DNA of 64,000 nt from Fimbriiglobus ruber (GTDB taxonomy: Bacteria > Planctomycetota > Planctomycetia > Gemmatales > Gemmataceae). The stretch spans positions 372,001 to 436,000 of the forward strand of contig NZ_NIDE01000008.1 in NCBI RefSeq assembly GCF_002197845.1, given 5' to 3'. Positions 4,901-52,155 of this stretch are shown here, piece by piece. The notes below the pieces were generated by a model. It worked only from the letters and a program-made list of their open reading frames with translations. It was not told the origin of the DNA and made no database searches. A program made the translations under genes and the position numbers. Within the stretch, counting starts at the first letter, position 1, and each line of letters begins with the position of its first letter.

Positions 4901-7698
4901 CCGGCGTCCCCGTGACCGTGACTGACGTCACTAACCCGGCGTCGCCAGTGCAATTCGCGAGTACGGTCTCCGGGGTCGGCGGGACGTTCTCGTTCGTGAG
5001 CCTGCCGAACGCACAGTACCAGCTCGGAATCGTCGGGAGCAGCAACCTCCCGTACGACCCGTCGACCACCTACCAGGTGACCGGGCCGGACACAACATAT
5101 ACGGTCACGAACGTCCCGGTCGCCACGACCACGTCCGGGATCGACGTGCCGGTGTTCGTGCGGGGGACGGTCAGCGGGATCGATTACATTGATTCCAACG
5201 GAGACGGGATCCAGGAATCCGGCGAAGTAGGCAACCCGGGGGTCGTCGTCCAGCTGTTGGACGCCACCACCGGCATCGTCTACGCGAGTACCACGACGGC
5301 TGCCGACGGGTCGTACACGTTCACGGGCGTCGGCGTCCTCCCCTCCTCGGACCCGTGGACCGTACGACAGATTCCGACCAACGGAGTCGTCCAAACCAAT
5401 CCGGCGGGCTCGCTCAACTTCACCTTGACCAGCGGACAACAGATCACGGGTAAGAATATAGGAGTTTTTACCCTCGGCTCGATTAGCGGGACGGTGTTCG
5501 AGGACTTGAACGGGAGCGGGGTTCTGGATCCCGGCGAACCGCCACTCGCCGGGTGGACCGTGAACCTGACTAACACCGGAACGGGCGTGGTCACCACAAC
5601 AACGACCGCCGCGGACGGGACGTACACGTTTAGCGGGCTGAGCTTCGGCACGTACCAAGTGAGCGAAGTCCTCATGCCGGGGTACGTGGCGACCGACCCG
5701 AACCCCCCGCCCGTGTCGACGCAAAGCGGGACGACCGTCGCCGGGACGAACTTCGGGAACTTCCGGCCCGCGACCATCTCCGGCACGATCTACGTCGACA
5801 CGAACGGGGACGGCGTCCAGGAAGCCAACGAGACCACCCCGGTGGCCGGGGCGACCGTCGCCCTCATCGACCCGCGGTCCGGCGCGGTCGTCGCCTCGAC
5901 GACGTCCGCCGCGGACGGGTCGTACTCGTTCGCCGGCCTGGTCCCGCTCGTCCTCCCCGGGAACACGACCCCATACCAGGTCGAGGTGACCGGCCCGGCC
6001 AAGTACGGCCAGACGTCGGCCAACCCGTCGGTCACGCTGACCAGCGGGGCGACGGTCGCCAACCAGAACATCGGGCTGTTCGTCAAGACCACGATCTCCG
6101 GGACCGTGTTCGACGACGCGAACGACAACGGGATCCAGGACCCGGGCGAGATCCGGCTGCCGGGCGTGCCCGTCCTCCTGATCAACACCGCCACCGGGGC
6201 GACGGTTCAGACCGCCACCACCGACGCGAACGGGGCGTTCACCTTCTCCGCCGTGTCGGCCCTGGCGGCCAACGGGGCGACCATCCCGTACGAGGTCGAG
6301 GCCGACCCGAACGGGTACACCACCACCACGCCCGAGACGACCGTCACGCTGACCAGCGGGGTCCCGGTCACCGGGCTGAAGATCGGCGTCTACCAGGACG
6401 TCCTTTTCACCGGCGTCACCTACAACGACGTGAACGGGGACGGCATCCAGGAGGCCAACGAACCGGCCGTCGCCGGGTTCACCGTCCAACTGGTGGACAC
6501 GAACGGGAACGTCGTCGCGACGACCACGTCGAGCGCGACCGGGGCGTACTCCCTGTACGGCGGCCCGGGAACCTTCACCGTCCGCGAGGTGCCCCCGACC
6601 GGGTGGGTCCAGACGACCCCGAACCCGGGCTACACGACGACCACGGACGGCGGCCCGCTCGTGTCCACGAACTTCGGGAACTTCCAGACCATCACCCTGT
6701 CCGGCGTCGTGTACGACGACATCAACGGGAACGCCACCCAGGACGCCGGGGAGCCGCCGCTGGTCGGGTGGACGGTGCAGCTCGTCAACTCCTCGGGGAC
6801 CGTGGTCAACAGCACGACGACGGACGTGAACGGGGCGTTCTCCTTCTCCGGCGTCGGGCCGGGGACGTACTCTCTGCAGGAAGTTCTCCAGCCCGGGTAC
6901 GCCGCGTCGACCCCGTCGAGCTACCCCGTGACCGGGGTCAGCGGGCAGTCCCAGACGTTCGCCTTCGGAGATTACGTCCCGGGGACGGTCTCGGGCACGA
7001 TCTTCGAGGACCTCGGCCGGGACGGGACCTTCGACTCGGGCGACCCCGGGTCGGCCGGGTGGACGGTCGACCTTCTCAACGGGAACGGGACCGTGGTCGC
7101 GTCGGCCACGACGGGTTCCGGTGGCACGTACTCGTTCGGGACACTGGCCCCGGGCTCGTACAGCGTCCAGCTGGTCCCGCGGCCGAGCTGGGTGGTCACC
7201 ACCGCGCTCCCGCCGGCCGTGACCCTGGCCAGCAGCCAGAGCCTGACGTTCGCGAACATCGGCGTCCTGCGGTTCGCGTCCCTGGGCGGGTTCGTGTACA
7301 TCGACGCGAACCGCAACTCGATCAAGGATCCGTCCGAAAGGGGCCTCGCGGGCGGGGTGGTCGGCCTGTTCGACTCGAACGGCAACCAGATCTCCACGAT
7401 CACCACCGGGGCGGACGGGTCGTACTTCTTCGGCGGTCTCGACAACGGGACGTACACGGTCAAACTGATCAGCAACACGGCCGGGTTCTCGCTGAGCGGG
7501 CCGAACCCGACGGCGTCGTTCACGGAGACGCTCACGGTCGGGTCGACGACCGCGAGCAACGACGTCGAGGGGCTGAACTTCGGCCTGGACGCGGACCAGC
7601 GGTACGCGATCGCGGCCGACGGCGGCGGCGGCCCCGGGTCCAGGTGTACGACGCGGTCACCGGCGCCCTGCTCCAGGACTTCTTCGTGTACGAGCTGA
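1918..7698 (+). CDS. Giant secreted surface protein: BNR-like repeats followed by nine SdrD-B-like repeats (frame broken at its 3' end)
   Basis: ATG at 1918 is chosen because MNLSRFLLSR and the VERLEDRSLPS motif follow directly; such LEPR/LEDR motifs open many large exported planctomycete proteins. Residues about 100-970 contain sortilin/BNR-type Asp-box repeats (STDGGNSW, SSDGGTTW, TTDGGATW), which form beta-propellers. From about 970 to 1895 there are nine SdrD-B/Cna-B-like units, each opening with a variant of SGTVFEDLNGSGVLDPGE; the D-x-N-G-D-G core suggests calcium binding. The frame ends at 7698 in a nonsense tail, while FG-GAP-like sequence continues in another frame from about 7638, so one base appears to be missing in the CCCC run at 7633-7636. 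Restored, the protein would be about 2,209 residues (1918-8546). Likely role: cell-surface adhesion or structure; substrate unknown. Confidence 0.85.
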   Translation: MNLSRFLLSRPIAPRIARTERGRTPVKIHVERLEDRSLPSTSIPLTASSWTPLGPSPTYANQQTGTNGVVTVGTNGATTAPNNQPTAGQIIATAVSPIDPNTIYAATADGGVAKSINDGQTWAMMTDNLPTTTPVDASGTSLGTIQPAQRNLHIGAIATDPYDPTGNTVFAGEGVYTNTDVSYAGQGLLESTDGGNSWTLEEGPLLSAATANSPAQYAFAGGSIRKILFVQDPNNTANNYIFVLTNPQGVNSTGSTPSAVYRSSDGGTTWVSITANLKNALNNPNQQISPFRQYTDFSVDPTNPGVAYVSVGDPGGYNYNGVYRTGPNAGSGGALDANAANITWTVLLGGNSIQVPGNQLGPILAAPVPQNPSTVYALVENAGGNLLGLYRSRNSGTDVVQIALPANTPAIDPNFSALSMIIDPTTGTGVTRIYISGSNGVMVVDVPETNGTGVIPTASVQDLSTSSDKNSPYPVIHNLTFDQPLAPAASGAFQASSANTHVIASTDTGVYELTTPIPAPTLVNGVLTNDFSPAPTVTWAAINGAPTAATSTTPGGTGLNATEFFGGSTGVLNDNGFIGGTNLTGTQVFNDSGNTSPPPPPASLYNWPATSTVPVGGTAVYDFRATNANGNLTTAYQVNANSAANLVQKSTDLGQTWAPAVTGIVDPGATGDASSPFTPPLVEDPSIPVGQGGTQNVRLLLGTDVVNQTTDSATTWSEFAHNLPYVTGTGGTIDAIGISRFDPNVVYVAVTARIDSNGADFGPGLYRVNTDITLSPAEPYSTWHDVSPTLDNNGTPTNFVGGSGDDVAGYIMPPFTGAPTEPYTNSLSGNITSIAVDPTNSDIVYVTVDSSDTDASGNAINTVYKTTDGGATWTNITGNLPYRAYSVVIDPNRLNGQTNDDIYVGTADGVWKTTGPSTANTVWTRVGGDLGTSTGMPDVAVFQVSINTTTGVLAAATFGRGVWEFQIRPYLAGEVFIDTNGDGLLDNTEVGVPPPGVPVTVTDVTNPASPVQFASTVSGVGGTFSFVSLPNAQYQLGIVGSSNLPYDPSTTYQVTGPDTTYTVTNVPVATTTSGIDVPVFVRGTVSGIDYIDSNGDGIQESGEVGNPGVVVQLLDATTGIVYASTTTAADGSYTFTGVGVLPSSDPWTVRQIPTNGVVQTNPAGSLNFTLTSGQQITGKNIGVFTLGSISGTVFEDLNGSGVLDPGEPPLAGWTVNLTNTGTGVVTTTTTAADGTYTFSGLSFGTYQVSEVLMPGYVATDPNPPPVSTQSGTTVAGTNFGNFRPATISGTIYVDTNGDGVQEANETTPVAGATVALIDPRSGAVVASTTSAADGSYSFAGLVPLVLPGNTTPYQVEVTGPAKYGQTSANPSVTLTSGATVANQNIGLFVKTTISGTVFDDANDNGIQDPGEIRLPGVPVLLINTATGATVQTATTDANGAFTFSAVSALAANGATIPYEVEADPNGYTTTTPETTVTLTSGVPVTGLKIGVYQDVLFTGVTYNDVNGDGIQEANEPAVAGFTVQLVDTNGNVVATTTSSATGAYSLYGGPGTFTVREVPPTGWVQTTPNPGYTTTTDGGPLVSTNFGNFQTITLSGVVYDDINGNATQDAGEPPLVGWTVQLVNSSGTVVNSTTTDVNGAFSFSGVGPGTYSLQEVLQPGYAASTPSSYPVTGVSGQSQTFAFGDYVPGTVSGTIFEDLGRDGTFDSGDPGSAGWTVDLLNGNGTVVASATTGSGGTYSFGTLAPGSYSVQLVPRPSWVVTTALPPAVTLASSQSLTFANIGVLRFASLGGFVYIDANRNSIKDPSERGLAGGVVGLFDSNGNQISTITTGADGSYFFGGLDNGTYTVKLISNTAGFSLSGPNPTASFTETLTVGSTTASNDVEGLNFGLDADQRYAIAADGGGGPGSRCTTRSPAPCSRTSSCTS

Positions 7699-19300: not shown

Positions 19301-19713
19301 GGCTTTTTCCTCCGTACCGGCTCGGGTTTCGCCGGTTCGGTGGGTTGCTTCAATCGCTCCTCGATCGCCTTGAGTTCTTCGGCGGTGAGGTGTTTCGCGT
19401 CCACGAGGCCCAACACGAGGCGCTCGGCCGAACCGCGGAAGAACCGGCGCACGAAATCGCCCAGAAGCGTCCCCGTGGCCTCGGCCCGAGTCAACAAGGG
19501 GCTGTAACGGTGAGCGGGTTGATCGTCACCGTGTGCGACCAACCCCGCCTTCTCCATGCCTTGCAACAAGCCCAACACGGTCGTGTACGGCATCTCCGAG
19601 CCCTCGGCCAAGTGCCCGAGAACTTCGCGAACGGTCAGCGGACCGTGTTCCCACAACAGATCCAGCACCGCGTACTGCCGCTCTGTAATCGCGAGTTGTT
19701 TTTTCCCTGCCAT
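19297..19713 (-). CDS. blaI: BlaI/MecI/CopY-family transcriptional repressor
   Basis: A 138-residue protein with the BlaI-type winged helix at the N-terminus (ITERQYAVLDLLWEHGPLTVREV, then MPYTTVLGLLQGMEKAGLV as recognition helix and wing) and a C-terminal dimerisation helix region. BlaI repressors bind dyad operators as dimers and are cleaved through the partner M56 sensor, whose gene follows with a 4-base overlap. A strong promoter and a dyad lie directly upstream, so autoregulation is expected. The signal sensed need not be a beta-lactam; no beta-lactamase gene is in the window. Confidence 0.92.
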   Translation of the reverse strand: MAGKKQLAITERQYAVLDLLWEHGPLTVREVLGHLAEGSEMPYTTVLGLLQGMEKAGLVAHGDDQPAHRYSPLLTRAEATGTLLGDFVRRFFRGSAERLVLGLVDAKHLTAEELKAIEERLKQPTEPAKPEPVRRKKP

Positions 19714-30638: not shown

Positions 30639-31697
30639 CTACCGCATACCCCGCTTGGCGGCTAACCGCTCCTCTTCCAACTTGTCGAGTTCCTGATATC
30701 GCTGCTCGTGGACCTTCGACTCGTCGAGTTTACCGACCGAACGCAGCGCCTGGGCCAGATTGAGGTGGGCCTGACGGTTATTGGGGTCCGCGGCCAGTAC
30801 CTTTTTGAGGAGGGGAATGGCCGCGTCGTACTGCTGGCGGCGCAAGCTGAGGGCGGCCTGCTCCTGAACGACGAGCAAGGAATCTTTTTCCAATCCGGCG
30901 GCCCGGCGGAGCAACTCCTCGGCACCGGCCAGGTCGTCTCGCTCGACGGCGCACTTGGCCAACCCCACCACCGGCTCGGCGAGTTCGGGCCGCATCCGCT
31001 GGCAGGTCTTCAGTTCCGGCTCGGCTTCGGCCATCCTCGCGTCACCAAGAAGGCTTTGGGCGAGGTAGAGCCGGGCCTGGAAGTTGTCGGGATTCTTGGC
31101 CAGCACGGCGCGGAAATCCTCGACCGCGGTCCCGTAATACATCGCGCGCATCCGCGCGGTCCCACGCTCGAACAGGATGTCGGGCTGGTTCGGGTCAAGG
31201 ACCAAAAGGCGGGTGAACAAGATCTCGGCATCGAGCCATCGGCTTTTCGCGAAGTACGCCCGCGACACGGCGCGAAGGACTTCGGGATCGTCCGGGCAAT
31301 CGCGGACAACCCGTTGAATGATCCCTTCGGCTTTCGGCGGGTAATCTTGCGCGGCCAGAAGCAGGGCGGCTTCCCGCCGCCCCTCCGCCTCCGGCACGCC
31401 GGCCGCGACCGCCCGCCCCAATGCGGCTTCCGCGTCTTTTAGTCGACCCTGCCGGCGAAAGATCTGGGACAACACGAGTAGCGTCGGCGGATTGCCGGGG
31501 CGGGCGGTGAGGTCCGCGCGGGCGGCCTCGACGGCGCTCTCGTAGTCGCCCGCAGCCAGCGCTCGGCGGGCGTCATCGAGGTGCTGATCCGGTCCCGGCG
31601 GGGGGAGCGATGGCCCCGGCCGAAACGCCCACCAGCCGCCGGCCGCGAGCAGCACCACGGCGACAACGCCGACCAGGAGCCGGGTGCGGGCGGTCAT
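30639..31697 (-). CDS. Membrane-anchored TPR protein
   Basis: A 352-residue protein with one N-terminal membrane segment (TRLLVGVVAVVLLAAGGWWAF) and about eight tetratricopeptide repeats covering residues 40-340 (for example DARRALAAGDYESAVEAARA and AHLNLAQALRSVGKLDES). The C-terminus is a charged coiled coil (QRYQELDKLEEERLAAKR). TPR arrays mediate protein assembly; no enzyme domain is present. Its start overlaps by 4 bases the end of the upstream TPR gene, so both are one transcription unit. Confidence 0.85.
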   Translation of the reverse strand: MTARTRLLVGVVAVVLLAAGGWWAFRPGPSLPPPGPDQHLDDARRALAAGDYESAVEAARADLTARPGNPPTLLVLSQIFRRQGRLKDAEAALGRAVAAGVPEAEGRREAALLLAAQDYPPKAEGIIQRVVRDCPDDPEVLRAVSRAYFAKSRWLDAEILFTRLLVLDPNQPDILFERGTARMRAMYYGTAVEDFRAVLAKNPDNFQARLYLAQSLLGDARMAEAEPELKTCQRMRPELAEPVVGLAKCAVERDDLAGAEELLRRAAGLEKDSLLVVQEQAALSLRRQQYDAAIPLLKKVLAADPNNRQAHLNLAQALRSVGKLDESKVHEQRYQELDKLEEERLAAKRGMR

Positions 31698-32747
31698 CGT
31701 GGCTCCTCTTTGATGGGCTCGGCTGGGGGAACGGCGGCGGCTTCCTTGATCAACCGCCCCTGAAGATCCCGGTACTTGGCCTCGTACTCGGCGGCCCGCT
31801 CGTTCTGTCCCGTTACGCGCAGTAGTTTCGCGAGCCGGTAGAGCGTTTCCAGGCGGTTCGGGTCGCCCGCCGCGGCCTGCTCCAGGTCGGCCAAAGCGGC
31901 TTTGGCATCACCCTGCTGCTCGCGGACCTGGGCGATGGCGAGCAGCGTTTCGACGTGCCCCGGGCGGCGGACGAGTACGGCTTTGTAAAACGTCTCGGCC
32001 TCGGCCCACTGGCCCAGAAACCCGGCCGCCCGCCCGGAACCGAAAAGCGCGTAAACGTCGTCCGGATCGTCGGCGAGGGCGGCGCGGAACAGGTCGGCCG
32101 CGGGGGGAAGTCGCCGAGGTCGAGGAGGCAGATGGCGAGAGCCTGTCGGGCCTTGGGGTAGTCGAGGGCGTTTGGTCCCGCCGCAACGGCGGCTTCGAGG
32201 TCGGCCCGCGCCAGGTCGAGCCGGCGGCCCTCCTGCCACGCGATGCCGCGGAGGAAAAGCGCGGCCGGATCGTTCGGCGACGTGGCGAGAACGCGGCCCG
32301 CAAGCTCACTGGCGCGGCTGTTCGCGCCTTGCTTTTGAAAGCCGGCAGCCAGCGCGAGCAATAAATCCGGTCGTCCGGTGCGGCAGCAAGACGGGTTTCG
32401 AGTTCCGGCCGGGCGCGGGGAAAGTCGGCCGCGGCCCGAACCAGAAGACGCTCGCGGTCGATCTCGCCGGCCGGCCACCCGAGCCCCTCGGCCTTGTCTA
32501 GGGCGGACCGCGCGTCGTCGAGCCGCCCTTCCAGACGGGCCTGTCGGTCGACCAGCACAAAGGCTTCGGCGCGGCTGGGGTAGGCGCGGGCGAGTTGATC
32601 GAAGGTCGCCGCGGCCCCACGCGTTCCGACCCGCCCGCGCGCCTCCGCGAACCGCGCCGCGGTTTCGCGCGACCGGTTCCAGAAGACCGCCCCGGCGACG
32701 AGCAGCGGAACGAGTAGCACGCCGATGGTGATGAGTAAGCGCCGCAT
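31694..32747 (-). pseudogene. TPR protein gene interrupted by two frameshifts (possibly sequence errors)
   Basis: Sense sequence runs through three frames: MRRLLITIGVLLVPLLVAGAVFW to LETRLAAAPDD in the first, DLLLALAAGFQKQGANSRAS to AICLLDLGDF in the second, AADLFRAALADDPDD to the stop in the third. The breaks lie near 32360-32375 and in the G6 run at 32102-32107. Each is repaired by adding one base. Restored, the product would be about 352 residues, an N-terminally anchored TPR protein like its downstream neighbour, with AEYEAKYRDLQGR at the C-terminus. Because no residues are lost and the sense frames join cleanly, an intact gene with sequencing errors is more likely than a decayed gene. 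Confidence 0.7.
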
Positions 32748-32759
32748 CCGCCCACCATG

Positions 32760-33163
32760 TCAGACTTGTGAGGCTGCCACGTCCGTCATTTTTCCGCGAT
32801 CCGACCGCGTATACCAATAGGCCCACGCGATCAAAACGCCCTGGATCGGGAGCCGCGCCCACAGGAACGCGGGATCGATGTCGGGAAACAGGTCCGAGTG
32901 GACCGCCATGTGGATGTTCGCCGGGAACACCGCGACCAGGAGCGCGATCAACCCCAGGCCGCCGTGACAGTATACCGCGGGACCACCAACAGAACGCCCA
33001 AGGCGATCTCGAACAGCCCACTCAGATAGACGAGTTCCGCGTGCCAGGGCAGGTACGGCGGCATGATGCGGATGTAAAACTCCGGCCGGGCGAGGTGGTT
33101 GACCCCGGCCGCGACGTACAACGCCGCACACAGCCACCGCGTCGCCGATTTGAAGGTTCGCAT
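32760..33163 (-). pseudogene. DoxX-like small membrane protein gene with one frameshift (possibly a sequence error)
   Basis: The first frame gives MRTFKSATRWLCAALYVAAG, NHLARPEFYIRIMPPYLPWH and LVVPRYTVTAAWG; the second continues with LIALLVAVFPANIHMAV, DIDPAFLWARLPIQ and GVLIAWAYWYTRS. The junction is the CCCC run at about 32951-32954 (plus strand); one extra base restores a 134-residue protein with four membrane segments. The NHL and PPYLPW motifs are typical of DoxX/MauE-like proteins. It heads the TPR operon, 12 bp before the next start. Confidence 0.7.
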
Positions 33164-33457
33164 CCGCTCAACTTATCAACGCCGCGCCGCCACACCCGGT
33201 TCCCCCGTTCGATTGCCATCTCTCGGGTCAGGAATGGACACGATTCGGCCGATGGCTTCGATCAGATCAACGGCGCGCTGCTGTTCTCCGGTCCGCCGGA
33301 CGCGCTGGCGCACCCGGTGGGCTGGATCGGCTATTTTACACGCAGAAGTAGTCATTGGACCCCGACGCGACTCGGCTCCTGCGTTCGATCAACGGATCAG
33401 GCACCATCCACGCGGGCGGCGATCGCCTCGCCCCATTCCCCTCTTGGCGATCCGGGG

Positions 33458-34528
33458 CTACTCGGCCCGGAGGCGGGCGTCCTGGTCGAGTACCCAGGTC
33501 TTGCCGCCGGCCGCCGCCGGAGCCTTGAGGGAGGCGGTGAACGCACGCGGGGTCGCCTCCAGAGTCGGCACACCAGACGGATCGGGCCGGAGTTTTAGCA
33601 GATCGGCAGCGGCGGTGTACCCGCCGGTGCGAGCGCGATAGGCATGCTGGGCGTAATAGGCGTCGTGCAGGCGGTCCTTGACGGCTCGGGCCGGGTCCGG
33701 TCGGAAGGCCACCGGCCCGGCGGCCTTGGTGCTGAACTGGACCTCTCCCCACCGCTCCGGGCGGTGCATGTCGATCACCCCTTGCGGGGACCAGACCCAG
33801 TTATGTTCCGGCCGGTTGGGCACCTTCACGACCTTTCCGGCCTTCACATCCACGTCCCACTCGACGCGAGAGAAGTTGATCCGGTAATGGTCGCCGTCCG
33901 CCGGCGGGACGGCGGCGGCGGTCAACTCCTTCAACCCCGCCCACGGCCAGGCGATCTCGACGGTCCAGCCCCGGTCGGTGTCTCGTGGGTCGTTCAGAGT
34001 GCCGTCCACGGCCACGGCCGTCTTGAGGCCGCGGATTTCCCAGGCGTTCACGGCCGTGCCCCCGTCCTTGTAAGGCTTGGTCAGGAGAAGGTCCCAGGTC
34101 ATATTGCGGGCGTTCAACTCCAACTCGGCGTACATGTGATTGTCGCCGTCCGGGTCCAAGAAGACCTCGAAGTCCGGATCGTGGAAGATGACGGCGTCGT
34201 GTTCGGTGATGGTCGCCCAGACGTTCGGCTCGACCAACTCGGCGGCGATGTAGAGCGCGCGGTCATCCCAGAGCATCTTCATCCGCGTCCGGTATTTCGG
34301 AGCCGGCTTGTCGAATCCTTCAATGTCCGCGAAGTCCTCACTCCACGGCGCGGCCGCCCAGACGGCGTCGTCGAGTTTGCCGTCGATCGTGGGCGGGGTC
34401 GTTGCCTTGAAGGCGACATAGCCCCGAGGCACTGGGGGGTTGACCGGAGCCGTCGGCGGGGCGGCCATCAAGAGCGGAAGGGCGAACACCAACGCCGCCA
34501 CTCCCAACTGATAAAACCGGGGCGTCAT
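33458..34528 (-). CDS. Secreted protein with a family 9-like carbohydrate-binding domain
   Basis: A 356-residue protein with a signal peptide (LGVAALVFALPLLMAAPP). Residues about 35-250 form a CBM9-like domain: ATTPPTIDGKLDDAVWAAAPW, FADIEGF, TRMKMLWDDRALYIAAEL, DPDFEVFLDPDGDNHMYAELELN and a second half ending MHRPERWGEVQFS. Such domains bind sugars, usually outside the cell. The start at 34528 is supported by GAGGAG just upstream. It follows the esterase gene by 7 bp, so it belongs to the same operon. Confidence 0.85.
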   Translation of the reverse strand: MTPRFYQLGVAALVFALPLLMAAPPTAPVNPPVPRGYVAFKATTPPTIDGKLDDAVWAAAPWSEDFADIEGFDKPAPKYRTRMKMLWDDRALYIAAELVEPNVWATITEHDAVIFHDPDFEVFLDPDGDNHMYAELELNARNMTWDLLLTKPYKDGGTAVNAWEIRGLKTAVAVDGTLNDPRDTDRGWTVEIAWPWAGLKELTAAAVPPADGDHYRINFSRVEWDVDVKAGKVVKVPNRPEHNWVWSPQGVIDMHRPERWGEVQFSTKAAGPVAFRPDPARAVKDRLHDAYYAQHAYRARTGGYTAAADLLKLRPDPSGVPTLEATPRAFTASLKAPAAAGGKTWVLDQDARLRAE

Positions 34529-34535
34529 ACACTCC

Positions 34536-35809
34536 TCACGGGCGGGACGATTGGGCGGGCAGAACAATCTCACTCGGCAGGTCGACCTTCACCTCGGCGT
34601 CGAACATGAGCTTGGGATCGCCGTACCCGACCAGGGTGCGAATCAGCGTGCCGGCCGTCCTGGGCGGCACGCCCGTGTACAGCGACTTCCCGGCGCGGGT
34701 GATCGTCACGGGTTTGTCGAGGTCGGCGGTGCGCGCGTCGAATCTAACGAGTAGAGTCGATACTCCCTCCGCTTTGGAAACGTCGACCGATTGGCCGTTC
34801 TTCTCGGCCACGACAAGTGTGTCGAGCTTGGCCGTACCGGGCGGGACGGCCAGCCAGTACGAGCGCTCGTGTGGGGTGCCGGTCTGCTTCCACACCACGC
34901 GGGCGGGGATCGGGTCGCGTGTGAACTTGGCCATCCACGGTAGTGCTGCTTTGTCCTCCAGGTCCATCCAGTGGCCTTTCCCTTCATGCACCTTGACGAA
35001 GTGCGTGTAGCCCTTCGGGTCGTCCTTTTGGAGTTCGTCAAGTTTCTTGCCATACTCGGCCGCGACTTTATTGCGATCGTAGGCGGCGTCGTTGCCCCCG
35101 ACCTGGAGGGCGAACGGGACGTTGCGGAGCGACAGGGGCGACACGCCGTTCGGGTGGCCGGCCATCATGGCCGCCCCGGCCCACCGGTCTGCCATCCGCG
35201 GGGCTATTTGGTAGACCCCGTCACCGCCGGCGGAGTAGCCCAGAACGTAGACGCGATCCGGGTCGACATCCTCCAGCACGATCAGATCTTCAATGAGCCG
35301 GCCGAAGAGTCGGTCGATGTGCGCCGTGTGCCACAGATCCCAGGTGTTCGTCGGAGCGCGGGGGGCGAGGTACAACCCCTCCGGCACTGTGTAGAGTTTC
35401 TTTTGGTTCTCCCACTGTTGGTCATTCACCCGGGCCGGGGCGCCACCGCCGCCGTGAAGCGAGATCCACAAACTGCGGCCGGTTTTGGGCTTCTCACCGA
35501 ACGTCTTGAAGGCGAACGGCATCGACAGTTTGCCGTCCGCCAGCTTCCGATCCTTGAGTTCACCGGCGCGGTCCCGGCGGACGGCCTCGGCGTGGGCCTT
35601 CCAGATTAGCTCGCGGGCCGTCGCGGCGTCGGCCTTGGTCAGTAGCACCCGCGCAAAGTCCTTGTCCTCCAGTTCCGCGAGGGATGCGGGCGAGGCACCA
35701 AGTGCTACCCGTAAGGCTTCGACAGCCGCGGACGAGGCGGCCGCCGTTGGGGTGTCAGCCGCGGCCCGACGGCAGGTAGCAGGAGGATAAGTGTGACCGT
35801 CAGGCGCAT
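34536..35809 (-). CDS. Secreted alpha/beta-hydrolase (esterase/poly-hydroxybutyrate-depolymerase-like), one frameshift near its start
   Basis: The main frame (34536-35648 and upstream to about 35765) encodes an alpha/beta hydrolase with RSLWISLHGGGG as oxyanion region, nucleophile elbow VLGYSAGGDGVY (Gly-Tyr-Ser-Ala-Gly) and GKGHWMDLED with the likely catalytic His. Its natural start lies in another frame: ATG at 35809 gives MRLTVTLILLLPAV, a signal peptide that loses sense at the CCC at 35765-35767. One added base joins it to AADTPTAAASSAAVEALRVA and yields about 424 residues with a normal signal-peptide site. Likely function: periplasmic or extracellular ester hydrolysis. Neighbours are a transglutaminase-like protein 34 bp upstream and a CBM9-like protein 7 bp downstream. 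Confidence 0.8.
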
Positions 35810-35843: not shown

Positions 35844-36998
35844 TCACTTCCGCGGGAGCGAGATGTCAACGATTTGTTGTCTACCGGCGGCGTCGGTAGT
35901 GACGGCCTTCTCGACCTGACCGACACGAATCACAACCTCACACCTGGCTGGTAGGTCAAAGCCGAGGATGTCGTTGGTGTCGGCCTTCTCGTCGCGGGCG
36001 GTGCCGGTCAGAGGAACCGCCTTGTCTCCCGCCGGCATGACCGCTACCGGGACGGCCACCCGGATCCCGTCGGCGTCGCGAACGCGGACGAGGAGGCGGA
36101 CCGTATTGGCCGCAGCCGGGGCCGGTTTGGTGTACCGAGCTGTGACGTTCTCGGCCGGAACTGTTTTGTTCTCTGTCGCCCAAATGAGGGGGAAGTGGAT
36201 GGCAGTTCGTTTGAAGCTCGCGGCGTAGATAGCGTGTTCCGGGACGTCGGCTTTGGCCCGGGCAGCGTCGCCCACGAACCACCCCCGATCGAGCCCCTTC
36301 GGGTCCGCCTCACACGCCCCGGTGAAGTGCCAGCCGTTGTCCCAGATTTCCACCCAGGTGTGGTTGCCCCGCTTGTCCGCCCACATCGGCGTGCCCACCA
36401 ACCGCGCGGGCACACCGACGGCCCGGCAGGCGTCGGCCAGCACGATCGACAATCCGCTGCAAGACGCCAGCCCGCTGGCGATGGTCTCCTTCGGTCCCTG
36501 GTTCGCGGCCCGCCGCCTGGTCGAGTACTTGACCTTGAGTTTGGTAAAGAGTTCCGAGTTCAGCTTCATGGCCGCCTCGGTCGGTGTCTTGCAGTCCTTC
36601 ACGAGCGGTAAGCCGAGTTCAAAGAACTCCGCCCGCCATTCGTCCCGCGGTTCGTCGAGGTTGGCGTAAGGGAGGACGTCGTTGAGGAACACGTCTTCGG
36701 GTACGGTCTTCCCCCACTTCACCTCGTTCCGTACTCGGTATGCCAGGGCGGTGTTGGTCAGGAGGTAATCCGCCTTGAGCCGGCGCAGGTCGGCGTCCGG
36801 CATGTTGGCGATGAGGAATGCCATCCCGGTCCGCTGGTCGGCTGGCGCCGTGGCCAGTGCCTTTTCCAACTCCGTGCGGTTGCTCCCCGCCCGATCGAGT
36901 GCCGCGGTCAAGCCTTGGTCCCACTTGGGCGGGTCCGCCGCACGGGCCGAAGTCATGGTAAGGGAGAGCGTAACGATCACGGTGACGCGGTTTATCAC
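35844..36998 (-). CDS. Secreted transglutaminase-like protein
   Basis: A 384-residue protein starting at GTG 36998 (MINRVTVIVTLSLT...), chosen because a signal peptide ending ARAAD follows and CAGGA precedes it; the frame is open to 37106. The transglutaminase-like core is in the middle: ETIASGLASCSGLSIVLADACRAVG (nucleophile Cys), then NHTWVEIWDNGWHFTGACE (His and Asp). The C-terminus (about 300-384) is a beta-rich domain. Such secreted Cys-His-Asp enzymes often act as proteases or amidases on peptides rather than crosslinkers. It is the first gene of a three-gene minus-strand unit with the esterase and CBM9-like genes. Confidence 0.85.
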   Translation of the reverse strand: MINRVTVIVTLSLTMTSARAADPPKWDQGLTAALDRAGSNRTELEKALATAPADQRTGMAFLIANMPDADLRRLKADYLLTNTALAYRVRNEVKWGKTVPEDVFLNDVLPYANLDEPRDEWRAEFFELGLPLVKDCKTPTEAAMKLNSELFTKLKVKYSTRRRAANQGPKETIASGLASCSGLSIVLADACRAVGVPARLVGTPMWADKRGNHTWVEIWDNGWHFTGACEADPKGLDRGWFVGDAARAKADVPEHAIYAASFKRTAIHFPLIWATENKTVPAENVTARYTKPAPAAANTVRLLVRVRDADGIRVAVPVAVMPAGDKAVPLTGTARDEKADTNDILGFDLPARCEVVIRVGQVEKAVTTDAAGRQQIVDISLPRK

Positions 36999-37178
36999 GA
37001 AGCGATCCTGTAAGAACGAATACGGCTTTGATCCTGCTGTGGGGGAGAAACAGCACCCGCTAAAAGTGTAGCGGATTGCCGCCGCCACGTGCTCCAAATT
37101 CGTCAACCGTCAACCGTGTCTTCGCCCCATCGCTGCTCTACGACCCCGTCATCTCGCCGTTCTGCGTGACGGGCGGAA

Positions 37179-37187: not shown

Positions 37188-38704
37188 GGGTGTGTTCAAA
37201 GTTTGTCGGTAGGTTTTTACGCGGCCAACGTTTTGGGGGTTGCCGCCGGTCGTGTCCTCGGGTGGGTGGCCCAGAACCCGTCCCAGAACGCGGGGCCACT
37301 TTGGTAGATGGCCCGCAACGCGGCGACGGCCGCGGCCCCGTTCACCGTCCACCGCATCCCGGCGCCCTTCAACCGGGCTCCGACGACTTTACACCCGGCT
37401 TCCGTCGGTCCACTCCCGAGGTCGTACCCGGCCGCACGGTACGCCGAGTAATCGGTCCGGTGAAGGGTTCCGTCGAAGTACCCGAGGAGTAATCGCCGGG
37501 CCTCGTCGGCCGCGTCCCCCGACGGCAACGGCTGGTCCCGAATCCACGCCACGAACCCGGCCCCACCGCGGTCGTACAACGTGCCCTTGGCCCGGTCCAC
37601 CCACGACTCCCGCGTGGCCTCGTCGGCCCACACCGCCCGGGCATACGTGTGGAGGTGTTCGACCGCGTGATACCAGTCCAGGATGCACAACAACCCGTCG
37701 TCGAAATGCCGCCGTAATCCGGCTTCCAACCCGTTCCCGGCGTCCGACACCGCGATCACCCGGTCGACGCGGCCGAACCCGCGGGCAATGGCCCGCTGAC
37801 GCAACCCCGCACACACCTGGTCGAGGTTCCAATCCGTCACGTACTCGGTCCCCGTCTTGTCCGGCGTGTACACCAGCCCGATGTACAGCATCCGGCTGTC
37901 CGCCTGCGTTCCGTCCGGGTGTTGGATCGGGACGCGGAACGCATCCAACCCGAGATACCCGATCGTCGTCGTCTGGTCCGGGGCGGTGAAATCCCAGGCC
38001 GGTTGGGGCGGGGACGGGACCACCACGCTCCCCGCCCGGGTCCGGGCGATCCACTCCTGGCCGGCCCGCTCGGTCGCCCGCCAGACGGTCCCGGCCGACA
38101 CCCGCCGACCGGCGAATCGGCGGAGCAAGTCGTCGGCCCCGTCGGCGAACGAGGCCAGCACTCCGGCCAAGGTGACCAACGGCCGGAACCCCGGGCTGAG
38201 GGCGTCGGCTTGCAGCCCCAGGGTGGCGTCGGCCGGACACGTCCCGGTCTGACACGCCCGGCAGTGGTAGTACGCTCGGGACACGTCGACATCCCCGGTC
38301 AAGGTCACGATCCGGCGGGACCGCCAGGCGTGGAACCGGGCGTCCGCCCGGCACTCCGGGCACACGATGCTCGACCCCTGGTACCCCCTTTTTTCCGGGC
38401 CTCGAGCCCGGTCTGGTGGGCCGTCGTGGCCAGGTCATGGGCGGCGTCCCGGAGCCGATACTCGATGTCCCCGAACAGTTCGGTGTCCGGGCGATCGACC
38501 AACTGCTCGGCCATCCGCCGGAGAGCGTCCTCGGCCGCCGGGCGGAGTTGGGTCAGAAGAGCCTCGATACGGGCGTGGCGGTCGGGAGTCGGAGACATGG
38601 TGCCCATCCTGGTCGGAATGTCCGGCCCGGTCACGAGTTCGGGCCGCTTCCCCGAACGTACCCGACACCCATCCATTTTGCACCCACTAACTTGGAACAC
38701 CCCC
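37188..38704 (-). mobile_element. ISKra4-family insertion sequence (1,517 bp)
   Basis: The ends are imperfect terminal inverted repeats: 37188-37206 against the reverse complement of 38686-38704, matching at 16 of 19 positions. A 9-bp direct repeat (CCAGTCGCC) flanks the element, so it entered by transposition and both ends are intact. One transposase gene fills it. It sits between the transglutaminase-like gene and the large amidohydrolase, which are divergent, and lies 92 bp before the amidohydrolase start, so it may affect that promoter. Confidence 0.85.
37217..38607 (-). CDS. ISKra4-like transposase, two overlapping frames joined at an A6G5 run
   Basis: The N-terminal frame runs from ATG 38607 (MGTMSPTPDRHARIEALL) and the main frame from about 38390 to 37217. 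The main part has a CPEC...CRAC zinc motif, catalytic-core strands IGYLGLDAF and VIAVSDAGNG, LDWYHAVEHL, and GSGPTEAGCKVVGARLKG with the catalytic Glu, typical of ISKra4. The frames meet at the plus-strand run C5T6 (38384-38394), A6G5 in the mRNA. A -1 slip there gives one protein of about 463 residues. This may be programmed frameshifting, as in several IS families, or another missing base. Confidence 0.8.
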
Positions 38705-38713
38705 CCAGTCGCC
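38705..38713. repeat. Target-site duplication, right copy
   Basis: Exact copy of CCAGTCGCC at 37179-37187; the match continues GG on both sides, which leaves the exact boundary uncertain by two bases. Confidence 0.75.
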
Positions 38714-38795
38714 GGAACTGGCGATTTCCGCTCTCTTGTTCGGTCGGTGGTGTGGTACAACGGAGCCACCTCCCCACACCACACCGGACATCATC

Positions 38796-46973: not shown

Positions 46974-47268
46974 GAAAGCACTCCGGGCTGAAGGGGAGAC
47001 CCGCAGTATAACGGAACCCGCGGCCAGTTTTGACAAAGAAAAATAGCGGGCGGGCGTTCGTGGGCTGCTCCGAATTTTTGTTATCTCACCGGGCCGCCCG
47101 TTCCAACTGACCCGCGGTTGTCTCCCATGTTCATACTGGGATTTTTGGAGATCACCGAAAAGTGGGGCCACAAAATCCGATGAAAAATTGATCCGGGCAA
47201 GGAGGGTAGTGACGGTCGGTTCCCGAAAGGGTACCATCGTTTCCGTCTCACTCCTGAGAGAGTTGCCC
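46974..47268. other. Divergent intergenic region between the triad and the giant kinase
   Basis: This gap must hold two divergent promoters. On the minus strand TATACT (47005-47010) is a good -10, but the nearest -35-like TTGTCA is 20 bp away. On the plus strand TTGACA (47030-47035) lacks a -10 at 17 bp. The kinase frame is open from 47188, but the sense part starts at 47269. Confidence 0.4.
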
Positions 47269-50200
47269 ATGTCCGCCCCGGACCCTCTTGAATCGCGCCC
47301 CACCGCCTCCTGGCCCGACCGCGTACCGGACCGGGTGATCGTGCCCGTCCCAGGGCCCGGACCGGCGCAAGTAGGCGCCGACGTTGATGAGAACCGCGAC
47401 ACGATCGGCATGCCGGTCGATCCCGACCCCGTCACCCGGACCCACAACGAGAATGACGCCCCGGCGGGCGATCCGGCCACCCGCACGAATTCCTTTCCGG
47501 CGACCAGCTCGTCCGTTCCCGACGGCGTGCCGGACATTCCTGGTTACGCGGTCGAGGCTGAGATTGCCCGGGGTGGGATGGGGGTGGTTTACCGGGCCCG
47601 GGACCAGCGTCTCAACCGCCCGGTCGCGATCAAGATGATCCTGGGCGGGAAGTACCACGACCCAGCCGCCCGGGTCCGGTTTCTGATCGAGGCCGAGGCG
47701 ATCGCCCAGCTCGACCACCCGAACGTGGTGAGCGTCTACGAATTCGGAACACACGACGATCTTCCCTTCTTCGCCCTGGAATACGTCGGCGGTGGAACCC
47801 TCGCGAGCAAACTGGCCCAGGACGGAAAGCCAGCACCACTAGCCGCGGCGGAACTGCTGGTGAAGTTGACCGACGGGATTCGGGAAGCACATGCCAAGGG
47901 GATTGTTCACCGGGACTTGAAGCCGTCGAACGTGCTACTGACCGCGACCGGAGAGCCCAAGATCGCGGATTTCGGCATCGCGAAGGTCGGGCAGTCGGAC
48001 ATGACGGCGACCGGGGCGGTCATGGGCACCCCGAGCTACATGAGCCCCGAGCAGGCAGGCGGGCGGACGCGGGAGGTCGGGACGCCGACCGACGTTTATG
48101 CACTCGGGGCCATTCTTTATGAAATGCTGACGGGCCGGCCGCCATTTCTGGGCGAATCGTCGATGGCGACGATCCAGCAGGTTCTGAACCAGGAACCAGC
48201 CCGGCCGCGGACCATCAACCCCGAGGTCTCCCGCGACCTCGAAACCATCTGCCTCAAATGTCTGGCGAAAGACCCCAAACAACGGTACGGATCGGCGTCG
48301 GAACTCGCTGCGGATCTGAAGGCGTTCGTGGCCGGGAAGCCCATTGCGGCCCGTCCGGTGGGCATCGTGGAACGCGCCTGGAAGTGGACCCGACGGCACC
48401 CAGCCAGAGCGATCGGGATGGCGGCCGGGATCTGCCTGGCGATTGGACTCGCGGTAGCGGGGTACGAAGTCCACAAGCAACGCGAAGCTGACCGGCAAGA
48501 AGTCAACGAACGGATGAACCGGAATGATGAGGCTGTGACCGCACTACTTGACCAGTGCGAGGCGGCGCTAAAGGACGGAGATGCAAGCCGAGCCAGCGTT
48601 GCCGTCGATGCAGCCGAGAGGCGGGCGGTCGAAGGAGGTGTGGACCACCTATCGGAGAGAATCGACGTACTCCGAGCCAATGTCGCTTTGTTAAAAGATT
48701 TGGATGCGGTAGACCGGTTTCGGTCAACCAGAAAAGGTCTGTTTGAAGAATCGAATAAAATCGTCGCAAGATATCGAGAAGCGCTAAAAAAATTCGGCGC
48801 CGATCCAAATGATGTCGCGCCCGAAGCGGCGTCGACAAAAGTGTCTGAGACCAAAGTCAAAGATCGGCTGGTGGTTGTCTTTGACTATCTTCTAGGCGAG
48901 GAAAAGAATAGCGAGGTTCTCGCGACATTAAAATTGATCGATCCTGACGCATTTCGCGATGCCGTTCGAGATGCGGTGCAGCAAGGAAACTCCCAAAAAA
49001 TTGATGAGTTGGCGAATCGTCCAGCCGCCCTCGATCAATCACCGGGCTTTACAATTTTTATGATCGAACGCATGTCTTCGGGCGAAGAGCGTCGGCGAGA
49101 ATTGTTTGAAGCAGTAGCTTGTAAGCGGCCGCGAGATTTAGGATTATTAATTGCCTCTGGTAGTGTAAATTTAGATGACGATGAATATTCGCCAGATGAG
49201 CAGCTGCGATGGTATCAGGCTGCGGCTTCTATAGTGCCTGAGAGTTCTCTAGCACATAAAATGTTGGCAGAAATACTCACACGAAAAGGCGATCGGAATG
49301 GCGCTATTATTCAGTTTCGAGAAGCAATTCGACTTGATCCACAAGATTGGACTAATCATTCCTCATTGTCAGAGCTTTTAAAAAGCAGTGGCGATGTGGC
49401 GGCATCAGAAACTGAGCGCAAAATGTCTAAAAAACTGGAAATGGATCAATATGGAAATAAGACGATATTAAAATTGTCAGATATTTATATGGATTATAGA
49501 CCTTGGGATATTGATAATGAGTATCTAGATGGTGTTATTAAAAATTTACATAAATTAATACACGACAATCCAGACAATGCAGTCGCTCAGAAAAATATGG
49601 GCAGAATAATGCATGCACTAGAAAATCAAGATGCTGCAATTGCTTCTTTCCATGCTGCAATAAAATCGGCGCCGAACGATGTAATTACGCGGGTTATGTT
49701 AGCTAGGGCACTTTCAAAAAAAGGATCACGAATCGAGGCGATTGCAGAATACGACGCTGCCATTTCCCTTGAACAAAAAGAGCTTTCACTCCGCATCGAA
49801 CTCGTAAAAGAATTGATGGCTTCTGCCAATAATTTGCGGGCCGTGATTGAGTTGCAAAAAATGGTCAAACTTGACCCGAAAGACGAAGGAGTACTAGAGA
49901 AGATCTTGGAAGTTGGAGGGGATTTAAGTTGGGCAACAAGTGCGTACCAAGAAGCCATACGATTAAATCCTAGTGAGCATTTGTGCCATCTACATTTGGC
50001 GACGATATTCGCCAAAAAGAATGATTACAAATCGGCTATTGCTGAATATCGAGAGGCAAATCGGCTTGGGCCGAGCAATGCTGATATTTGCATACAATTT
50101 GGGCAATCGCTTGAAAAGGGTGGCGATCGGCAAAGTGCGATTGCTCAGTATCGCAAGGCCGTTCAGCTAAATCCAGCTTTTTCGAAAATTCCAGAATTGA

Positions 50201-52155
50201 TGAAGAACAACAAAAGCAACTTAAATTGGATTATTGAAGAATACCAGAAAGCAATTTACGCGTCTCCAAGAAAAATAAAAATCCGATCAACATACGCGGA
50301 GATCCTTGAAGCCCAAGGAGAACTTGACCTTGCAATTAAAGAATATCAACAGATTGTCTCTTTTAACGTCTGGAATTCAACAATTAGGCTTAGACTAGCA
50401 AGCCTCTTATTAAAAAAGGGCGAGCTTGTTTGGGCAATCGCAGAATGCCGCGAGGCATATCGGTTGGATCCGGATGGAATATATCCACACACGGTCCGAT
50501 CCAGTATATATGATGCAATTATATCTAAGGCGGGCGAGCTAAACAAAAACGGCCACCGCAATGATGCAATAGTATTATATCGAGAGGCGATTCGGCTTGA
50601 TCCTACAATGTTCTTGCAAGAAGATTTGGTAAAAATTACAGAAAAACGAGATTGGGCTATTGAAGAATTCCGTAGATTAGTTCATGACCGCCTGTTGAAC
50701 ACTGATCTCGCATGGATAAATTTGGCTGGAGCATTGGAAGCAAACAATGAGCCGGATGGCGCTATTGCTGCGTATCGTGAAGCCATTCGACTACACCCGA
50801 ATGAAAGTTCAACACACAGTTTGCTTGCAAACTGCTTGAGTATTAAGGGCGATCAAGATAGGGCAATCGCCGAATATCGTGAAGCGATGCGACTTGATCC
50901 CAGAAATCGAAACTTTGGCCTAAGAGAGACTCTGGCTGAGTTGTTGAGGTCTAAAGGAGACAATTTGAAGTCACAAGGAGACAGAGGTGTGGCAATCGTA
51001 TATTATCGTGAAGCTATTCGACTTGATCCTTCTCGTTTTCTGCTAGATATCGATGAACACAAAGGCGATCTGAATTGGGCTGTCGAGGAATATCGCGAGC
51101 TCGTTCGCATCACACCAGACGACCATCGATCACGCATTAACTTCGCCATCATTTTGGCCGCCAAGGATGACCAAGCTGGAGCTATTGTTGAATACAAGCA
51201 GGCTATCCGGGTTGCTCCGAATGAAGGCTTCACTCACTATGAGTTCGCAAAATTCTTGGAGACAAAAGGTGATCAAGAAGGAGCGATTACCGAATGCCGG
51301 GAGGCTATTCGACTTAGTTCAAACGAGATTAAAGCCGATTTCTCCCGAACCCTGCTTTGCCGATTATTGAAGTCCAAGGGAGACAAATTGACGTCTGACG
51401 GCGACCTAAACAGCGTAATCGCCCTTTATCGAGAAGCCGTCAGAGTGGATGGCAAGGACAATTTAACCCACCAGAAATTGACACAACACTTGGAATCAAC
51501 AAGGGACTGGGGCGCGCTCCTAATTGTGTACCAAGAGACTATTCGACTGAATCCAAATGATATGGAGGCTAAAACCCAACTTACTCGTGCAGAGAAACTG
51601 CATCGCTTACAGAATAATCTCCCTGAGCTCTTGGCCGGTCACCAGAAATTAGCCACAGCGGCCGAGGCGTTAGAGTTCGCCCGACTATGTTCTCGAAGTT
51701 TTCCGCAACGGTATTCTGCTGCGTCGCGCTTTTACGAGCTTGCGTTTGTACGAGACCGCTCTCTTATGGCCGATCTTATCGCGGGCTATCGTTATGATGC
51801 GGCGCGATATGCAATGCTAGCCGCTAGCGGCGAGGGCTTTGATGCGCCATTCGGATCGTTCGACCAAAGAGCTTTGCGGGCCAAGGCACTAGCATGGCTC
51901 AAGGAAGACCTAGAAATTCTGAAGTTTAAAGCCGCCTCGTCCAACAAATCAGATAGACATCTGGCCGTCGCACAACTCACTCACTGGCTCGGGAACACTG
52001 ACCTGAATGAAACACGCCCTGGGATCAGGCGGGTGAAAATGACAATCGTAGAACGTCACTCCTGGGATACGCTGTGGAACGATGTCCGGGCTACTTTAAC
52101 AGTGGCGAAACAAGCACCGCCCTTGGAGGTCGCTCCTCAGCCGCGGGTGAAGTGA
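47269..52155 (+). CDS. Giant Ser/Thr protein kinase with C-terminal TPR array
   Basis: A 1,628-residue protein from ATG 47269 (MSAPDPLESR). Residues about 90-355 are a Hanks-type kinase: ARGGMGVVYRARD, AIKMIL, HRDLKPSNVLL, ADFGIAKVG, GTPSYMSPEQAGG and DVYALGAILYEML. A membrane segment (IGMAAGICLAIGLAVAGY, about 383-402) follows, so the kinase is inside and the rest outside. The remaining 1,200 residues carry roughly 20 TPR-like units of the AIAEYREAIRLDP type. Base composition changes abruptly: the kinase part is very GC-rich, while from about 48700 the DNA is AT-rich (only 14 G or C in 49441-49500). The reading frame stays open and the repeat motifs are intact, so the gene seems functional. 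Confidence 0.88.
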   Translation: MSAPDPLESRPTASWPDRVPDRVIVPVPGPGPAQVGADVDENRDTIGMPVDPDPVTRTHNENDAPAGDPATRTNSFPATSSSVPDGVPDIPGYAVEAEIARGGMGVVYRARDQRLNRPVAIKMILGGKYHDPAARVRFLIEAEAIAQLDHPNVVSVYEFGTHDDLPFFALEYVGGGTLASKLAQDGKPAPLAAAELLVKLTDGIREAHAKGIVHRDLKPSNVLLTATGEPKIADFGIAKVGQSDMTATGAVMGTPSYMSPEQAGGRTREVGTPTDVYALGAILYEMLTGRPPFLGESSMATIQQVLNQEPARPRTINPEVSRDLETICLKCLAKDPKQRYGSASELAADLKAFVAGKPIAARPVGIVERAWKWTRRHPARAIGMAAGICLAIGLAVAGYEVHKQREADRQEVNERMNRNDEAVTALLDQCEAALKDGDASRASVAVDAAERRAVEGGVDHLSERIDVLRANVALLKDLDAVDRFRSTRKGLFEESNKIVARYREALKKFGADPNDVAPEAASTKVSETKVKDRLVVVFDYLLGEEKNSEVLATLKLIDPDAFRDAVRDAVQQGNSQKIDELANRPAALDQSPGFTIFMIERMSSGEERRRELFEAVACKRPRDLGLLIASGSVNLDDDEYSPDEQLRWYQAAASIVPESSLAHKMLAEILTRKGDRNGAIIQFREAIRLDPQDWTNHSSLSELLKSSGDVAASETERKMSKKLEMDQYGNKTILKLSDIYMDYRPWDIDNEYLDGVIKNLHKLIHDNPDNAVAQKNMGRIMHALENQDAAIASFHAAIKSAPNDVITRVMLARALSKKGSRIEAIAEYDAAISLEQKELSLRIELVKELMASANNLRAVIELQKMVKLDPKDEGVLEKILEVGGDLSWATSAYQEAIRLNPSEHLCHLHLATIFAKKNDYKSAIAEYREANRLGPSNADICIQFGQSLEKGGDRQSAIAQYRKAVQLNPAFSKIPELMKNNKSNLNWIIEEYQKAIYASPRKIKIRSTYAEILEAQGELDLAIKEYQQIVSFNVWNSTIRLRLASLLLKKGELVWAIAECREAYRLDPDGIYPHTVRSSIYDAIISKAGELNKNGHRNDAIVLYREAIRLDPTMFLQEDLVKITEKRDWAIEEFRRLVHDRLLNTDLAWINLAGALEANNEPDGAIAAYREAIRLHPNESSTHSLLANCLSIKGDQDRAIAEYREAMRLDPRNRNFGLRETLAELLRSKGDNLKSQGDRGVAIVYYREAIRLDPSRFLLDIDEHKGDLNWAVEEYRELVRITPDDHRSRINFAIILAAKDDQAGAIVEYKQAIRVAPNEGFTHYEFAKFLETKGDQEGAITECREAIRLSSNEIKADFSRTLLCRLLKSKGDKLTSDGDLNSVIALYREAVRVDGKDNLTHQKLTQHLESTRDWGALLIVYQETIRLNPNDMEAKTQLTRAEKLHRLQNNLPELLAGHQKLATAAEALEFARLCSRSFPQRYSAASRFYELAFVRDRSLMADLIAGYRYDAARYAMLAASGEGFDAPFGSFDQRALRAKALAWLKEDLEILKFKAASSNKSDRHLAVAQLTHWLGNTDLNETRPGIRRVKMTIVERHSWDTLWNDVRATLTVAKQAPPLEVAPQPRVK

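What the first reader, a model, noticed from the sequence alone, without database searches (positions are those of the whole stretch)
31694..35809. Cluster of -1 frameshifts, mostly at G/C runs
Four breaks (about 32102-32107, 32360-32375, 32951-32954, 35765-35767) hit three genes, all repaired by adding one base, mostly in G/C runs. With the 7.6-kb case they form a systematic pattern more consistent with sequencing error than decay. Genes marked as broken here should be treated as probably intact.
Basis: partly seen in the sequence, partly recalled or inferred. Interest (0 to 1): 0.5.

Follow-up and report, generated by a model that had tools for sequence, protein, structure and literature searches.

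The report
Frameshifts from assembly base-dropping errors
Three neighbouring genes in this bacterium look broken, but the breaks fit single bases dropped by the sequencing or assembly, often in runs of G or C, so the genes are probably intact; this is an ordinary artefact.

Summary
The four frame breaks exist. The TPR gene breaks twice and the DoxX-like gene once against single open frames in relatives; the esterase break parts a signal-peptide frame from the mature frame (weaker). All are one base short. Two of four lie in G/C runs of 4 or more.

Error is much likelier than decay. A frame-aware HMM kept 33 one-base-short and 11 one-base-long breaks in 1.6 Mb of this genome, against 0 and 1 (0.4 Mb) and 1 and 2 (0.8 Mb) in two relatives. 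The short ones favour G/C runs (19 of 33; background 22%). Stop-type lesions are not in excess. Near-identical repeat copies differ at 15 one-base sites, 13 in G/C runs; the odd copy is shorter in 6 of 6 decidable sites.

Corrections: genome-wide the breaks are not all losses; the clustering is not shown to exceed chance; and the break at 38384 is a repeated, probably programmed -1 frameshift of an ISKra4-family transposase, not an error. No reads were available. Low interest.

The parts
31694..32747 (-). TPR-repeat protein gene, read in three frames
   Evidence: one open frame of 356 aa in relative G012 (L066) covers all three pieces in order; TPR families on the second and third pieces, none on the first
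32367..32370 (-). first break of the TPR gene, one base short; no G/C run above 2 within 15 bases
   Evidence: blastx bracket; HMM call at 32361; run check
32096..32106 (-). second break of the TPR gene, one base short, at a run of six G/C
   Evidence: blastx bracket; HMM call at 32105; run check
32760..33163 (-). DoxX-like membrane protein gene, read in two frames, break at 32951-32954 in a run of four, one base short
   Evidence: L061, L062 and L063 each cover both pieces in one frame; first piece weakly DoxX, DoxX_2 and MauE, each below its Pfam cut-off, second piece no family
33458..34573 (-). CBM9-domain protein gene between the broken genes, intact
   Evidence: Pfam CBM9_1; same-genus relative G002 in one frame without stops
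34536..35809 (-). esterase (PHB-depolymerase-like alpha/beta hydrolase) gene; ATG-led signal peptide in another frame than the mature part, break near 35742-35777
   Evidence: main frame homologous up to 35777; N-termini compared; no Pfam family; TIGR01840 below its cut-off
7628..7645 (+). the 7.6-kb break, one base short, in a long gene with SdrD_B and FG-GAP domains
   Evidence: HMM call at all four settings tried; families on the two pieces differ
37217..38784 (-). contrast, not an error: ISKra4-family transposase in two frames with the junction near 38384 at six A followed by G
   Evidence: NF033572 positions 58-420 from residue 2 of the downstream frame, 185.9 bits against a cut-off of 205; junction motif exact in 31 places

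Best explanation
The breaks are consensus errors of the assembly. Long or flow-based reads under-call the length of short G/C runs, and incomplete short-read correction left what I estimate as a few hundred single-base losses, and fewer gains, in this GC-rich 12.4-Mb genome. Each such error inside a gene shifts the frame. The TPR, DoxX-like and esterase genes are then whole in the living cell. Shown: the breaks, their excess over two relatives, their direction and run bias, and the same signature between repeat copies. Inferred: the technology, the missing correction, and the total.
For: Kept breaks (both flanks 200 bases or more, single copy) at penalty 18: 33 short and 11 long in 1.6 Mb, against 0 and 1 in 0.4 Mb (G003) and 1 and 2 in 0.8 Mb (G012); at penalty 22: 24 and 7 against 0 and 0 in both. 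At penalty 18 the caller found single-base losses and gains alike (78 and 73 of 156 each), at 22 rather fewer losses (46 and 56), so the bias is not its own. G/C run of 4 or more within 15 bases: 19 of 33 (background 22.2%, P 1.2e-5); of 6 or more: 6 of 33 (0.8%, P 1.9e-7). Local GC higher than background (0.677 against 0.657, P 0.0007). Stop-type lesions without a nearby start: 10 in 1.6 Mb against 6 in 0.4 and 5 in 0.8 Mb, so no excess. Repeat copies at least 99% identical: 13 of 15 one-base sites lie in G/C runs of 4 or more, and the minority copy is shorter in 6 of 6 decidable sites. The three TPR pieces are 47, 53 and 59% identical to L066 from first to last, so no fading after the breaks. 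Published: long-read assemblies can keep hundreds of residual errors, mostly homopolymer indels (PMC8812927, passages); deletion errors are commonest after runs of four to five (PMC12007338, passages).
Against: No reads or coverage could be seen, and the sequencing method of this genome was not found. Eleven of 44 kept breaks are one base long. Two of the four breaks of the finding are not clearly in runs of 4 or more. Only 6 of 29 break pairs searched show one Pfam family on both sides, two of those in transposases. PMC12007338 (passages) found more A/T-run than G/C-run errors in its own case. The repeat-copy test uses repeated DNA, where correction is hardest.
Confidence: 0.88

Rival explanations
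1. The genes are real pseudogenes: the frameshifts are mutations fixed by drift in genes no longer needed.
For: The genome is large and rich in near-identical repeats (57 pairs in the sample); some kept breaks fall in transposase and phage-type genes.
Against: Decay should bring stop codons as well, yet stop-type lesions are not in excess; codon signal and homology continue after the TPR and DoxX-like breaks; a phosphate transporter and an RND-type transporter are also hit.
Confidence: 0.07
2. The sites are programmed or tolerated ribosomal or transcriptional frameshifts, or phase-variable tracts.
For: A programmed-type junction exists nearby at 38384, so the genome seems to use the device in mobile elements.
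Against: Relatives hold the TPR, DoxX-like and esterase genes in one frame; the runs at the four sites are short and differ; I saw no shared slippery motif at the four sites, by eye only; phase variation should give gains and losses, yet the odd repeat copy is shorter in 6 of 6 decidable sites.
Confidence: 0.03
3. The breaks are natural slippage in G/C runs in a mutator lineage, true in the sequenced culture only.
For: Run bias and direction would also fit a contraction-biased repair defect.
Against: A mutator would be expected to change A/T runs too; runs of 4 or more are not enriched (3 of 33, P 0.34), though runs of 5 or more are weakly (3 of 33, P 0.015).
Confidence: 0.02

Closest known systems
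Homopolymer-length indel errors of long-read bacterial assemblies (PMC8812927, PMC8011154, PMC12007338; passages seen)
   Same: single-base indels, here mostly losses, in short runs; gene-fragmenting; hard to correct in repeats
   Different: here mainly G/C runs, in a GC-rich genome; PMC12007338 reports more A/T-run errors in its own case; read type unknown here
ISMich2-group ISs of the p-MULT 4 transposases (ISAzba1, ISMich2, ISKra4) with a -1 frameshift (PMC3942029, passages seen)
   Same: for 38384 only: transposase in two frames, -1 shift, junction repeated between copies
   Different: not what the four breaks of the finding are; lineage placement not tested

Membership tests
Long-read homopolymer consensus error | excess of single-base indels over well-assembled relatives | tested here: met
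   44 kept breaks in 1.6 Mb against 1 in 0.4 Mb and 3 in 0.8 Mb at penalty 18; assembly methods of the relatives unknown
Long-read homopolymer consensus error | bias to losses in homopolymer runs | tested here: met
   33 short to 11 long, P 0.0013; 19 of 33 at G/C runs of 4 or more; minority copy shorter in 6 of 6 decidable sites of 15
Long-read homopolymer consensus error | each of the four sites lies in a homopolymer of 4 or more | tested here: not met
   two of four; a third has a run of three at the named place and a run of four elsewhere in its bracket; one has none
Long-read homopolymer consensus error | reads disagree with the consensus | not testable with these tools
   no reads held
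Pseudogene | nonsense as well as frameshift lesions in excess | tested here: not met
   stop-type lesions 10 in 1.6 Mb, controls 6 in 0.4 and 5 in 0.8 Mb
ISMich2-group programmed frameshift (38384 only) | transposase in two frames joined by a -1 shift | tested here: met
   HMM call at 38384, one-base-short sense; NF033572 positions 58-420 in the downstream frame, below its cut-off; no Pfam family on the upstream piece
ISMich2-group programmed frameshift (38384 only) | junction conserved between elements | tested here: met
   31 exact places, beside downstream frames about 40% alike in protein; copies with another run length would not be found by that pattern; in the 80 stretches 5 of 5 have six A; two further relatives, C17:237195 and C7:91137, have no place in the list
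ISMich2-group programmed frameshift (38384 only) | placement in the ISMich2 lineage | not tested
   no tree made

The most novel reading that the evidence does not exclude
The genome is as written: hundreds of genes carry true contractions of short G/C runs, read through by unusually tolerant frameshifting or born of a contraction-biased mutator state.
Probability: 0.03. Interest if true: 0.7.

Novelty: not a real feature. Interest (0 to 1): 0.1.

Why it matters
It matters for users of this genome: genes that look split or broken here, and by my estimate several hundred elsewhere in it, should be checked before anyone claims gene loss or counts genes. It also shows that correction must spare the true frame junctions of insertion sequences.

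Tried and rejected
A homology-only count of breaks (blastx of stretches against stop-to-stop frames of other loci) had too little overlap: 7 events in the first 0.8 Mb of G000, three of them the finding's own sites, for which references had been fetched on purpose; 1 in G003; 0 in the first 0.4 Mb of G012. It was not used for rates.

The loosest HMM setting (penalty 14) kept 55 short and 18 long in G000 (34.4 and 11.2 per Mb), 8 and 4 in G003 (20.0 and 10.0) and 21 and 12 in G012 (26.2 and 15.0); this is little above the controls, I think because overlapping neighbour genes are miscalled. Only the stricter settings separate the genomes. A first caller without gene overlaps was replaced.

Cluster as a sign of a local coverage hole: pairs of kept breaks within 1 kb 3 against 1.12 expected, reached in 196 of 2000 shuffles; within 2 kb 5 against 2.35 (172 of 2000); within 4 kb 5 against 4.30 (818 of 2000). 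Not supported, though only two of the finding's four breaks are in the kept set, so this does not test the group of four directly. With 620 breaks per genome, an estimate of mine, a group of four in 3.67 kb occurs in 39% of simulated genomes and 3.2 breaks are expected per 64 kb (five were seen); with 400 it occurs in 8.5%, with 900 in 88.7%.

HMM calls in the window at 19315, 23784, 31703, 34537 and 45963 were taken as gene overlaps, and those at 24924, 43320 and 48478 as caller artefacts (all); these readings are mine and were not tested further.

The genome paper that I recall for the likely species (size match only; Fimbriiglobus ruber SP5, recalled) is not held, so the sequencing method is unknown to me.

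Full report
What was checked. The window is contig C8, 372001-436000, of an unnamed 12,363,577-base genome in 20 contigs. Its size matches what I recall of Fimbriiglobus ruber SP5; no call confirms the name. The cited region holds, on the minus strand, an esterase gene, a CBM9-domain gene, a DoxX-like gene and a TPR gene.

The breaks. Blastx against relatives places three of the four cleanly. The TPR gene aligns in three frames to one 356-aa open frame of relative G012 (L066), with breaks at 32367-32370 and 32096-32106. The DoxX-like gene aligns in two frames to single frames in L061, L062 and L063, with the break at 32951-32954. The esterase has homology in its main frame up to 35777, no usual start codon in that open frame above 35648, and an ATG-led signal peptide in another frame that resembles the start of L052; this break is likely but loosely placed. 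All four are one base short. Two lie at G/C runs of 4 or more, the one at 32367-32370 has no G/C run above 2 nearby, and the last is named at a run of three with a run of four elsewhere in its bracket.

Genome-wide test. I trained a three-periodic HMM on each of three genomes and let it change frame at a price. With both flanks at least 200 bases and repeated DNA left out, G000 has 33 short and 11 long breaks in 1.6 Mb, G003 0 and 1 in 0.4 Mb, G012 1 and 2 in 0.8 Mb at penalty 18; at penalty 22 the counts are 24 and 7, 0 and 0, 0 and 0; at penalty 14 the genomes barely differ. Before these filters the totals at penalty 18 were 98, 6 and 8. The G000 sample holds the window's own stretches L075-L077 with neighbours on C8, and 13 stretches lay elsewhere, most of them at hits of earlier searches; the others were spread over contigs by hand. 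In a control on G012 the caller found, with both flanks long enough, 78 of 156 single-base losses and 73 of 156 gains at penalty 18, and 46 and 56 at 22, so it does not favour losses. My estimate from these numbers is about 620 breaks in the genome.

Signature. Of the 33 short breaks, 19 have a G/C run of 4 or more within 15 bases (background 22.2%), 9 a run of 5 or more (4.8%) and 6 a run of 6 or more (0.8%); A/T runs of 4 or more are not enriched, those of 5 or more weakly (3 of 33, P 0.015). Long breaks show little run bias (4 of 11 at G/C runs of 4 or more; 3 of 11 at 5 or more, P 0.013; none at 6). Local GC is higher than background for the short ones (P 0.0007) and not clearly for the long ones (P 0.058). 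Stop-type lesions, meaning same-frame continuation within 30 bases of a stop without a nearby start, number 10 in 1.6 Mb, against 6 in 0.4 Mb and 5 in 0.8 Mb in the relatives. Decay should raise both classes; only frameshifts are raised.

Gene-independent test. Within the 80 stretches, 50 overlapping pairs of repeat copies at least 99% identical over 500 bases or more (59,273 aligned bases, 79 substitutions) differ at 15 distinct one-base sites (two gap calls at alignment edges dropped, one multi-base gap set aside). Thirteen lie in G/C runs of 4 or more. Six sites had enough copies to say which is odd; the odd copy was shorter in all six, and nine were undecided. The control genomes offer little: no such pair in G012 and one in G003, with 7 substitutions and 2 one-base gaps, neither in a run of 4 or more (threshold 97%).

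Protein families across strong breaks. Of the 31 strongest, 29 were searched piece by piece in Pfam; the two of the TPR gene went into in window coordinates. In 6 of 29 the same family lies on both pieces in order: TPR, ACR_tran, TMP_3, DDE_Tnp_ISAZ013 twice, and PHO4. One more is a histidine kinase whose ATPase domain begins at profile position 36 just after the break. The other 22 give no such evidence.

The breaks are not uniformly losses genome-wide. Clustering beyond chance is not shown. A further break in the window, at 38384, is no error: the downstream frame matches the ISKra4 transposase profile NF033572 from position 58 (below its cut-off), and the junction, six A followed by five G, stands exactly in 31 places, beside downstream frames that fall into groups about 40% alike in protein. 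The pattern would not find copies with another run length; in the 80 stretches, where the number of A was left free, 5 of 5 have six. Two related downstream frames (C17:237195 and C7:91137) have no such place. PMC3942029 (passages) describes a conserved -1 frameshift in the ISMich2 group of these transposases as likely programmed. A blanket repair of frame breaks would damage such elements.

Literature. Residual homopolymer indels in long-read assemblies are well documented (PMC8812927, PMC8011154, PMC12007338; passages seen). Papers naming the likely species were searched; I found no statement of its sequencing method in what I saw: listings, and passages of PMC11279305, whose method passages describe another strain.

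Verdict. An ordinary assembly artefact, at high confidence as a pattern and lower for each single site. Reads are needed for proof.

Noticed in passing
window 37217-38784, junction near 38384: ISKra4-family transposase in two frames with an A6-G junction motif that stands exactly in 31 places of the genome; probably programmed -1 frameshifting and not an error.
   Followed up: yes
L090:3979-5155 and L096, L103, L166, L175, L189: IS630-like element (named by eye), 99.8-100% identical between the six copies, with a frame change at a TTTTTTAAAA stretch in the one-base-long sense.
   Followed up: partly
L106:13908-15289 and L174, L176, L183: Another repeated element, four copies, whose frame changes near a GGGGGGAAAAA stretch close to its end.
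   Followed up: partly
L053 (G002), open frame 211-2577: In a same-genus relative the esterase and the transglutaminase-like gene (named by eye) upstream of it (window 35844-37106) lie in one open frame; in the window one stop separates them in the same frame. Fusion, or a lost stop in that assembly.
   Followed up: no
L156:18885-19990: Tape-measure-like protein (TMP_3, one piece above and one below the cut-off), split by a one-base-short break; suggests a prophage in this genome.
   Followed up: no
window 48001-52000: GC falls to 0.46-0.50 in a window mostly at 0.60-0.70, across the ORF 47188-52155 (1655 aa); may be foreign.
   Followed up: no
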